Under the pieces are notes generated by a model that was not told the origin of the DNA, searched no databases, and was given only the letters and a program-made list of their open reading frames with translations. 64,000 nucleotides of DNA from Stappia sp. 28M-7 (GTDB lineage: Bacteria; Pseudomonadota; Alphaproteobacteria; Rhizobiales; Stappiaceae). This document shows positions 37,925 through 41,917 of this stretch, piece by piece; the stretch's first letter is position 1; every line of letters begins with the position of its first letter. The DNA lies in NCBI RefSeq assembly GCF_014252955.1, contig NZ_JACMIA010000001.1:3432258-3496257 (forward strand), read 5' to 3'. Made by a program: the position numbers and the translations under genes.

Positions 37925-40900
37925 CTATTCGGCCCCGTCGTCTTCGACGGGGAAATCGCGTTTGAGGGCCTCGACCAGCGGCCCCATCCGGGTGCCGAGC
38001 GAGCCCTTGACCATGATGACGTCGCCCGGACGGATATCCTCGATGAGCAGCGGCTTCAGACCGGCCGCTTCCTCGGAATAGGCGCCGCGCTGGTGTTTCG
38101 GCAGCAGCTCCCACAGCGCGTGCATGCGCGGTCCTGCGCAGTAGACGAGATCCGCACCGGATTCGGCAACAGGCCGGTTGAGGGCCGCATGCAGCTGCAA
38201 CTCGGCCTCGCCCAGCTCCAGCATGTCGCCGATCACCGCGATGCGGCGGCCGTTGCGCTCGATCGGGGTTTCCCGCAGGAGGTTGAGCGCGGCACGCATC
38301 GAGGCCGGGTTGGCGTTGTAGCTCTCGTCGATCAGCGTAGCGCGGCCGTTCGGTAGCTGCAGCACCGCCTGTTCGCCGCGTCCCTTCGGCGCGCGGAAGG
38401 CGGCCAGCGCCATGCCGGCACGGGCCAGGTCGCCGCCCAGTTCCGCCACCGCGCCCAGCACGGCAAGGCTGTTGGCGACCAGGTGCACGCCCGGCGCGCC
38501 GACCTTGTAGGTGATCTGCTGGTCGAAGACATGGCCGGAGATCGAGCTGCAGCCCGTCTGCGCGGACACCCGCTCGGCCTGCACGTCCGCCTGCCCCTGC
38601 CGCCCGAACGTGGCGATGCGGCGCACGCCAGCGGCCTTCGCCAGATAGGTCAGCAAGTCGAACTGGTTGTTGTCGCGGTTGAGCAGCGCCAGACCGCCCG
38701 GCTCCAGCCCCATGAAGATTTCCGCCTTCGCCTGGGCGATGCGCTCCACCGAGCCGAAGAACTCCAGATGCACGGCCTCGACCGTGGTGATCGCCACCAC
38801 GTGCGGGCGCACCATCTGCACCAGCGGGGTGATCTCGCCGGCATGGTTCATGCCGATTTCGAAGACGCCGTATTCGGTGTCCGCCGGCATCCGCGCCAGC
38901 GTAAGCGGCACGCCCCAGTGATTGTTGAAGGAGGCGACCGGCGCATGGGTGCGCCCGGACGGCGACAGCGCCAGCTTCAGCATGTCCTTGGTGCTGGTCT
39001 TGCCGACCGAGCCGGTCACCGCAACGATGCGGGCCCGGCTGCGGGCCCGCGACGCGCGGCCCAGATCGCGCAGCGCCTCCAGCGGGTCCTCGACGACCAG
39101 ATAGCGCCCCTTCGGCGGCAGCGAGCCGACGCGTTCGCGCGCGACGATGGCAAGCGCGGCTCCCGCCTCGCAGGCCTTGGCCGCAAAATCATGCCCGTCG
39201 AACCGCTCGCCCGCGATCGCCACGAAGGCCTCGCCGGCGGCAATGCTGCGGCTGTCGATGGAAACGCCGGTGATGTGGGGAATGTCCGCGCCGCGCAGTT
39301 CGCCGCCCGTCGCCTCGACCATCTCGTCCAGATACCACAGCGGCCGGTCGGGCTCGGCCTCGATCGGCTCTCCGGCGACCGGCGCCGGCTTCACCGCAGG
39401 CGCTGCCGGGGCGGTAAAGGAGGGCACCGCCGGCACGACGAAGGCCGGGTGCACGCCCGCTGCAACGGGCGCAGGCTCTGCCGTTTCCTGACGCTCGGAG
39501 ACGGGTTCGACAGCTTCTTCCTGCGCATCGACGATTTCGGCTTCAGCGTCCGTGTCCGCCTCGTCCTCTTCGTCAGCGACGGCAAGCCACTCATTCTCCG
39601 CCGGCGGCTCGTCCGCCAGCGCATCCTCATCGCTCTGCGTCTCGAGAGCTTCGGCCTCTTCCGTCAGCGCGTCGGGACCGCCGAAAATATCGTCGTCACC
39701 CTCCAGGACCGTCTCGGCGGGCTCGTTCTCCTCGTCGGAATCATCATCGCCGACAAGGTCCTCGGCCAAGCTCTCTTCAAGCTCGCTCTCGTCGGCCTCG
39801 TCCTCGGCCGTCTCAGGGTCGTCCACCGGATCCGTTTGACCCAGAAGATCCTCCTCGGTGAGGACGATTCCCGGAAACGTTCCCCTGCCCGCCTCGTCAT
39901 CGGCCAGCAGATCATCCTCGTCCGCAGCGACAAGGTCCGCCTGCGGCTCATCGGCCGCCAGGTCGTCTTCAGGCAGCTCGCCCTCAAGCAGTTCGTCCTC
40001 GGGCTGATCGTCTTCCGAGAGAAGCTCGTCGGCCAGATCCTCGTCGGCCAGATCCTCTTCGGCGAGGTCTTCGGCCAGCTCTTCCTCTGCAGCCTCCTCG
40101 TCGCCGGCGTCCGGTTCGTCGCCCTCCTCTTCGGCAACGTCCCCTTCGGCGGCACCCTCCTCCGCAACGTCTTCTTCGGCGCCAAGCTCCACATGCAGCT
40201 CGTCCGCCTCGTCGTGCAGTTCGGGCTCCTCCGCCTGGTCGGCGCCGCGGTCTTCTTCGTCGAACAACTCGTCCAGCAGGTCGTCCTCGGACAGCTCCAG
40301 CGGAAGACCGTCCTCCTCGTCCGTCTCGGGCAGCGTCTCGTCTTCGGCGTCCTGCGCCGGATCGAGGCTGCCGGCGAGCGCCTGTTCCAGCGCGTCGTCG
40401 AGGTCGAGCCCGAGGTCGATGCCCCCGTCCTCGGCGGCATCGAACAGCGCGCTTTCGGCCATCGCCGCAATCGCCTCGCGTGCGACCTCGTGATCGGAGA
40501 AGGGCAGCACCTGATCGCCGACGATCTGGCCCGGCTCATGGCCCTTGCCGGCGATGCACAGCACGTCGCCCGGCTGCAGCATGCCGATGGCGGCCTCGAT
40601 GGCGTCGCGCCGATCGCCGATCTCCAGCGCATCCGGGGCGCCGTCCATCACCTCGGCGCGGATCTTCGCCGGATCCTCGCTGCGCGGATTGTCGTCCGTG
40701 ACGATGACGATGTCGGCCTGCCGGGCCGCGGCCTGCCCCATCAGCGGGCGCTTGCCCGGATCGCGGTCGCCGCCGGCTCCGAACACCGTGATCAAGCGGC
40801 CCTTGGTGAAGGGGCGCAGCGCCGCCAACGCCGTGTCCAGCGCATCCGGCTTGTGTGCATAGTCGACGAAGACCAGCGCCCCGTCGTCGGTCTCGCCGAC

Positions 40901-41917
40901 CAGTTCCAGCCGGCCCGGAGCGCCCTGCAGCTCCTCCAGCGCGGCCAGCGCCACGCTGGTGGGAACGCCGCTGCAGATCGCAAGACCGGCGGCGACCAGC
41001 GCATTGGACACCTGGAAGCGGCCGGCCAGCGGCAGGCGCACCTCGAAGAAGCCCTCGATGGTCTCGATCGACAGAACCTGCGTGAAACCGTCGTGGCTGA
41101 TGTCGAGAAGCTTCAGGTCGTCGCCGCCCTCGCCGACGGTGAAGACGCTGCGGCCGAGCTCGCGCGCCAGAGCCAGAACGCGTCCGGCATAGGGCGCGGA
41201 CGGCTCCAGCACCACCGGCTGGTCGCCCTCCAGCAGCGTATCGAACAGCCGCAGCTTGGCCGCAAGGTAGTCCTCGACGTCGGCATGGTAGTCGAGATGA
41301 TCGCGGCCCAGATTGGTGAAGGCCGCGGCCGTCAGGCGCAGCCCGTCGAGCCGGCGCTGGTCGAGCCCGTGGCTGGAGGCCTCGAGCGCGGCATGGGTGA
41401 TGCCGTCGTCGGCCAGCCGCGCCAGCGTCTGATGCAGCGACACCGGGTCCGGCGTGGTCAGGCTGCCATACTGGGCGCCGCGGCTGGTCACCGTGCCGAT
41501 GGTGCCGAGGCTCGCGGCCTCGAAGCCGGCATGGGCGAAGATCTGGCGGACGAAGACGGCGACGGAGGTCTTGCCGCTGGTGCCGGTCACCGCCACCAGC
41601 GTCTCGGGCTGGCGCTCGTAGAAGCGGGCGGCCATCAGCGCCAGCGTGCGGCGCGGGTCGTCGCTGACGATGACGGGGCAGCCGCCCTCATCGGAGCCGA
41701 GCGCCGCCAGCGGCGTGTCGCTGCCCACCAGCAGGGCGCCGGCGCCGGCATCGCGTGCGGCCGCGATGAAACGGGTGCCGTCCGCCTTCGCGCCTTTCAG
41801 CGCGGCGAACACAAATCCCCTGGAAACCGTTCGGCTGTCTGCGGACAATCCGGCGATTTCGGTTTCGAACTCGGGCGCGGCGAGCACCTGTTCGCCGGTG
41901 AGGTCCTTCAGCAGCAT
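37925..41917 (-). CDS. MurE-MurF fusion with long acidic linker
   Basis: One uninterrupted 1330-residue frame carries both successive cytoplasmic ligases of the UDP-MurNAc-pentapeptide pathway. Residues 1 to ~490 are Mur[20 protein letters not shown]-loop TGTSGKTS (111-118), carbamylated-lysine region AAKLRLF (K221), and DNPRSEDP (409-416), whose Arg marks the meso-diaminopimelate-adding type. Residues ~491-855 are a low-complexity linker dominated by Asp, Glu, Ala and Leu, ending Pro/Ala/Val-rich. Residues ~858-1330 are Mur[20 protein letters not shown]-loop [11 protein letters not shown] (968-978), [50 protein letters not shown] end. Start ATG at 41917 fits MurE; 50 upstream codons are dropped. 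Separate murE and murF genes are usual in this order. Confidence 0.93.
39353..40447 (-). repeat. acidic low-complexity linker coding region of the MurE-MurF fusion
   Basis: This stretch encodes residues ~491-855. By hand count about 144 of residues 491-820 are Asp or Glu, with three Arg and no Lys. Short degenerate units recur, such as [20 protein letters not shown] and [10 protein letters not shown], so growth by slippage of GAG/GAC-rich units is plausible. Composition is unlike the two enzyme domains on either side. Confidence 0.8.

What the first reader, a model, noticed from the sequence alone, without database searches (positions are those of the whole stretch)
37925..41917. MurE and MurF fused into one 1330-residue protein inside the dcw cluster
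The sequence gives one uninterrupted frame with two full Mur ligases in pathway order: two P-loops (111-118 and 968-978), the DNPR meso-diaminopimelate signature and MurF motifs. In most bacteria murE and murF are separate neighbours; MurE-MurF fusions are known from some Bordetella. Here the fusion is joined by an exceptionally long linker and keeps the usual cluster position. It would put two consecutive steps on one chain and force equal amounts of both enzymes.
Basis: partly seen in the sequence, partly recalled or inferred. Interest (0 to 1): 0.85.

Follow-up and report, generated by a model that had tools for sequence, protein, structure and literature searches.

The report
Two cell-wall ligases, one acidic tether
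In this bacterium and its close relatives two consecutive cell-wall enzymes, MurE and MurF, are made as one protein joined by a very long, acidic, apparently unstructured tether whose length differs greatly between species; the fusion is a known kind, the tether is the unusual part.

Summary
It is no sequencing artefact: 33 of 87 family genomes are fused (31 in one open frame, 2 cut at contig ends inside the linker); 54 of 87 keep separate genes. MurE-MurF fusion is known (Bordetella, Pseudovibrio; PMC6420597), and compact fusions (linkers 6-23 residues) occur in 11 of 135 non-family genomes of the order. The linker is what stands out: 21-696 residues in the family, 23-40% Asp+Glu, on the disordered side of a charge-hydropathy plot in 30 of 30 of at least 100 residues, fast-evolving but coding, and in 9 of 33 genomes carrying perfect in-frame hexanucleotide arrays (up to 93 copies). 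A relative with only 21 linker residues shows that great length is not indispensable there. Most likely: two separately folded ligases on a loose acidic spacer, translated in fixed ratio. New variant of a known kind; linker function not shown.

The parts
37925..41917 (-). murE-murF fusion gene, 1330 codons plus stop
40466..41917 (-). MurE part (residues 1-484)
   Evidence: NF001124 741.5 bits (cut-off 476), TIGR01085 517.8 bits (cut-off 257.3); aligned to solved MurE chains
41567..41587 (-). MurE P-loop TGTSGKT (residues 111-117)
40682..40696 (-). DDNPR (residues 408-412), holding the DNPR that is the meso-diaminopimelate signature (meaning of the motif recalled)
   Evidence: identical stretch in the aligned E. 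coli chain 1e8c
39347..40465 (-). acidic linker (residues 485-857): 373 residues, 149 Asp/Glu, 4 Lys/Arg, no Cys; imperfect tandem repeats of 12-30 nt within it
37928..39346 (-). MurF part (residues 858-1330)
   Evidence: NF010693 735 bits (cut-off 544), TIGR01143 490.8 bits (cut-off 288.6); aligned to solved MurF chains
38996..39016 (-). MurF P-loop TGSVGKT (residues 968-974)
42000..43712 (-). ftsI (upstream neighbour), stop 82 nt before the murE-murF start
   Evidence: frame; used as FtsI query matching FtsI in relatives
36831..37916 (-). mraY (downstream neighbour), ATG 8 nt after the fusion's stop

Best explanation
The gene makes one bifunctional enzyme: MurE adds meso-diaminopimelate and MurF adds D-Ala-D-Ala to the cytoplasmic peptidoglycan precursor (activities inferred from family). 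The two ligases fold separately and are held together by an intrinsically disordered, strongly acidic chain that acts as a loose, soluble spacer. SHOWN here by sequence: one frame, both families complete, single copy, lineage-wide conservation, loss of a recognisable MurF start site in most fused loci, an acidic, low-complexity linker that is coding, evolves fast and differs greatly in length. INFERRED: co-translation fixes a 1:1 ratio; the linker keeps the two enzymes near each other without fixing their orientation; it grew partly by in-frame repeat slippage (6-bp units add two residues and never shift the frame), with length weakly constrained and acidity kept.
For: Frame and families; only copy: (the second, 29%-identical match lies in the murC frame of the window). 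33 of 87 family genomes fused. In 15 of 15 separate family loci read at DNA level the murE stop lies 2-5 nt before MurF homology, so no spacer is present there. Linkers: 23-40% D+E, 0-7% K+R, 30 of 30 of at least 100 residues on the disordered side of the charge-hydropathy line, against MurE and MurF of the window on the folded side. Linker dN/dS 0.14-0.43 in 11 of 12 pairs (12th not computable), MurE 0.04-0.20, MurF 0.02-0.16. Perfect hexanucleotide arrays of at least 8 copies in 9 of 33 fused genomes, at least 4 copies in 12 of 33; 93 perfect GAAGCC copies in G351. No SD-preceded start near MurF in 18 of 21 fused loci, against 15 of 15 separate loci with one.
Against: No structure could be predicted, so disorder rests on composition. 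The window's own linker has no perfect hexanucleotide array, only imperfect repeats. Three fused loci (G009, G013, G028) have possible internal starts, though GAG-rich acidic codons imitate SD sites. The persistence of acidity over 31 complete linkers could mean more than a spacer. No enzymatic or protein data exist here.
Confidence: 0.65

Rival explanations
1. The acidic linker is a working part: it docks other cytoplasmic or membrane-bound cell-wall enzymes (MurG, MraY, MurC/D) through charge or short motifs, and so organises a precursor-making complex.
For: B. pertussis MurE-MurF interacts with MurG in vitro (PMC6420597, abstract and passages). Acidity is kept in 31 of 31 complete linkers while sequence diverges. 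Within the genus the first residues after MurE (A-x-A-E-S-x-L-F and a following Asp/Leu-rich stretch) can be aligned in 12 of 14.
Against: Hydrophobic residues are not clustered into docking-like patches: 1 of 31 linkers beats its shuffles at p below 0.05. A matrix of the genus motif scores above 95% of shuffles in 7 of 19 other linkers and not in 12. Length falls to 21 residues in G353.
Confidence: 0.2
2. The linker is neutral baggage: after fusion, simple-sequence expansion produced a tolerated chain with no benefit.
For: Length 21-696 residues in genus g6 alone; perfect hexanucleotide arrays; high dN.
Against: dN/dS below 1 in 11 of 11 computable pairs and uniformly acidic composition with at most 7% K+R in 31 of 31 complete linkers; one near-complete removal among 31 (G353).
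Confidence: 0.25
3. Sequencing or annotation artefact: two genes joined by a missed stop or frameshift.
For: High GC gives long chance frames; two relatives, G001 and G352, break at contig ends inside the linker.
Against: 31 of 87 family genomes show one open frame over the junction; the contig breaks sit in EA repeats, as repeats would cause; third-position substitutions dominate.
Confidence: 0.01

Closest known systems
Bordetella pertussis bifunctional MurE-MurF (PMC6420597, abstract and passages seen; PDB 8f5d, whose organism is recalled)
   Same: MurE then MurF on one chain, encoded as one gene; both halves homologous over the aligned parts
   Different: 945 residues with a linker of about 20 residues (PMC6420597); in 8f5d MurE and MurF homology are practically adjacent (chain 503 and 505). 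Here 373 acidic residues lie between.
Pseudovibrio MurE-MurF fusion, named in PMC6420597
   Same: Same family, and genus g6 (named by a contig-length match of G028 to Pseudovibrio exalbescens) has the same fusion with acidic linkers, 16 of 16 genomes incl. one cut at contig ends
   Different: The passages seen do not describe those linkers; their lengths here run 21-696 residues
Compact MurE-MurF fusions elsewhere in the order and class
   Same: Same gene order and fusion
   Different: Linkers 6-23 residues in 11 genomes of the order, mostly not acidic; 10 of 289 class genomes give one unbroken match over both halves in frames of 939-1029 codons (capped list)
Mur chimeras surveyed in a 2023 PNAS paper on MurE-MurF architecture (recalled; not held)
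   Same: As recalled, it reports MurE-MurF as the commonest Mur chimera, directly joined or with a linker
   Different: I could not read whether it mentions Stappia or long acidic linkers

Membership tests
MurE (UDP-MurNAc-tripeptide synthetase, meso-DAP type) | passes curated MurE model cut-offs | tested here: met
   NF001124 741.5 bits vs 476; TIGR01085 517.8 vs 257.3
MurE (UDP-MurNAc-tripeptide synthetase, meso-DAP type) | P-loop and DNPR motif (meaning recalled) | tested here: met
   TGTSGKT at 111, DDNPR at 408; both align with E. coli 1e8c
MurE (UDP-MurNAc-tripeptide synthetase, meso-DAP type) | adds meso-diaminopimelate | not testable with these tools
   needs an enzyme assay
MurF | passes curated MurF model cut-offs | tested here: met
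   NF010693 735 bits vs 544; TIGR01143 490.8 vs 288.6
MurF | P-loop in the central domain | tested here: met
   TGSVGKT at 968, aligned with 1gg4
NCBIfam NF008896, bifunctional MurE/MurF equivalog | score over the curated cut-off of 1023 bits | tested here: not met
   848.7 bits; 0 of 289 class genomes and 0 of 249 phylum genomes passed either, so this is not filed as a member of that model's family
MurE-MurF fusion (general kind) | both ligases complete in one reading frame, as the only copies | tested here: met
MurE-MurF fusion (general kind) | one stable polypeptide with both activities | not testable with these tools
   needs proteomics and assay

The most novel reading that the evidence does not exclude
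The linker is a selected, length-tunable acidic tether: in-frame hexanucleotide slippage lets lineages change by two residues per unit the reach or crowding behaviour of an essential enzyme pair without risking a frameshift, so that a core cell-wall step carries a contingency-like repeat; the tether would gather other precursor enzymes near the membrane.
Probability: 0.12. Interest if true: 0.75.

Novelty: new variant of a known kind. Interest (0 to 1): 0.42.

Why it matters
Whether fused or neighbouring Mur ligases gain from contact, from mere closeness, or only from equal amounts is an open question. The compact Bordetella fusion suggests a defined arrangement of the two enzymes; a family whose natural linkers run from 21 to 696 disordered residues is a ready-made length series in which contact, closeness and stoichiometry can be told apart. 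It also gives an example of perfect tandem repeats growing inside an essential biosynthetic gene.

Tried and rejected
Artefact of a missed stop: rejected by 31 of 87 family genomes with one open frame.

Larger fusions: one search listed open frames of 1400-2100 codons for many class genomes. I fetched 12 loci, not all with such frames; none proved to be a larger fusion of dcw proteins, the long frames being chance frames or not reproduced.

Two independent fusions: MurE and MurF trees do not group the fused genera, but approximately unbiased tests do not reject one clade: p 0.058 (MurE), 0.184 (MurF), 0.072 (both), 0.395 (8 other dcw proteins), 0.154 (all ten). One origin with a later split, or two origins: undecided.

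Docking motif in the linker: hydrophobic clustering not above shuffles in 30 of 31 linkers tested; an hmmsearch test gave no scores at all and is void; a matrix test was mixed (7 of 19 with fewer than 50 of 1000 shuffles reaching the score). Inconclusive.

Internal start for MurF: not seen in 18 of 21 fused loci, possible in G009, G013, G028.

Structure prediction: machine busy, accepted (48), job failed (52) (53); no model obtained, no fold search run. I had planned, but did not run, an off-frame dN/dS control; codon-position counts stand in its place.

Papers: searches. Only PMC6420597 was opened, and of it only the abstract and passages. One search found no paper; the Stappia + MurE listing had 5 papers, none opened, none of whose titles concerns Mur ligases. 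That I know of no report of these long acidic linkers rests on these few searches of an open-access library.

Full report
What is there. On the minus strand of the window, 41917 to 37925 is one frame of 1330 codons. Residues 1-484 are MurE and 858-1330 MurF by curated models, with P-loops at 111 and 968 and DDNPR at 408. Between them lie 373 residues, 149 of them Asp or Glu and 4 Lys or Arg. The gene lies 82 nt after the ftsI stop and 8 nt before the mraY start. In the genome (5,126,068 bases, 11 contigs, 99.98% complete) a search with the whole protein finds this copy and one weak match (29% identity) inside the murC frame of the same cluster, so the fusion is the only MurE and the only MurF seen; both enzymes are essential in bacteria with peptidoglycan (established knowledge), hence the fusion is very probably active.

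Is it real. Long open frames are cheap in this GC-rich DNA: an antisense frame of 1198 codons covers the same stretch. The survey settles it. Of 87 genomes of the family, 33 carry the fusion: genus g1 14 of 14, g7 3 of 3, g6 16 of 16; 31 of these were read as one frame from DNA and two (G001, G352) are cut at contig ends inside runs of EA codons. The other 54 (g2 45, g3 1, g4 5, g5 3) have separate genes: 15 read at DNA level, 39 judged by the frame lengths. In the 15, the murE stop is 2-5 nt before MurF homology and MurF has an ATG with an SD-like site; in 18 of 21 fused loci tested no SD-preceded start was found from 60 codons before to 12 after that point. Names: Stappia stellulata (L034) and Stappia sediminis (L035) are fused among the named loci, as are L032 and Pseudovibrio exalbescens (L046); contig lengths tie G019 to S. 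sediminis, G028 to P. exalbescens, G007 to L032, and the unfused G036, G016 and G017 to Roseibium aggregatum, Pannonibacter indicus and Breoghania corrubedonensis. That the window is a Stappia is inference from this; Stappia belongs to Stappiaceae, Hyphomicrobiales.

How unusual is the fusion. In the order survey, 140 of 150 genomes matched MurF at 1e-60; 135 of them lie outside the family. All 24 of these whose MurF frame reached 740 codons were read: 11 are fused with linkers of 6-23 residues, 13 are separate. Fusions cut by contig ends could be missed. In the class, 10 of 289 genomes give one unbroken model match over both halves (a capped list, blind to long linkers). In the phylum, 7 of 249 gave one match at 1e-180; of these 7 only G218, of the same order, is truly fused. 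So compact fusions recur; linkers of 100 residues or more were met only in Stappiaceae. PMC6420597 (abstract and passages) already names Bordetella and Pseudovibrio and gives about 20 residues for the Bordetella linker.

The linker. The 31 complete family linkers run from 21 (G353) to 696 (G351) residues with 23-40% Asp+Glu and at most 7% Lys+Arg. All 30 of at least 100 residues fall on the disordered side of the charge-hydropathy line, the window's MurE and MurF on the other. In 12 pairs the linker's dN exceeds that of MurE and MurF by roughly 3- to 17-fold, yet dN/dS is 0.14-0.43 in the 11 computable pairs (MurE 0.04-0.20, MurF 0.02-0.16), and in 7 of 7 pairs third codon positions differ most. 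Perfect hexanucleotide arrays of 8 or more copies occur in 9 of 33 fused genomes (G001, G003, G009, G010, G013, G018, G350, G351, G352), of 4 or more in 12 of 33, none in the window; G351 has 93 perfect copies of GAAGCC, (Glu-Ala)93. In the tree, G353 (21 residues) is sister to G028 (169) inside genus g6, so the linker probably shrank there, and a long linker can be done without.

Origin. Trees of MurE and MurF place g6 differently and do not unite the fused genera; tests of one fused clade give p between 0.058 and 0.395. One fusion followed by a split in the Roseibium-Pannonibacter line, or two fusions, both remain possible. Separate relatives have no spacer, so the linker is an addition, not a relic of an intergenic stretch.

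How it most likely works. Two separately folded ligases are translated together and kept near each other by a charged disordered spacer. The 1:1 ratio follows from one chain (inferred; processing not excluded). Channelling is not supported by the anatomy: a chain of hundreds of residues cannot fix the orientation of the two active sites, and even in Bordetella they were modelled about 35 A apart (PMC6420597, passage). A docking role for the acidic chain is possible but my motif tests were mixed and one was void.

Verdict. Observation confirmed; interpretation right in the main but the fusion is a known kind and a lineage trait. The long, acidic, length-variable linker is a new variant as far as the few searches made here show.

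Noticed in passing
L208 / L214 (genome G351), murE-murF linker: 93 perfect tandem copies of GAAGCC encode (Glu-Ala)93 inside the fusion gene, giving a 696-residue linker.
   Followed up: partly
L112/L113 (G001) and L215/L216 (G352): Contig ends fall inside the EA-coding hexanucleotide array, so the repeat seems to have broken both assemblies.
   Followed up: partly
L134 (G022) and L210 (G374): murF matches lie in two different frames in these two unfused relatives; true break or assembly error not decided, nothing mended.
   Followed up: no
window 38483-42079, + strand: A 1198-codon antisense frame is open over the fusion gene, a reminder that open frames mean little in this GC-rich DNA.
   Followed up: no
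table: Open-frame values of 1400-2100 codons for many class genomes did not reproduce as fusions in the 12 loci fetched.
   Followed up: partly
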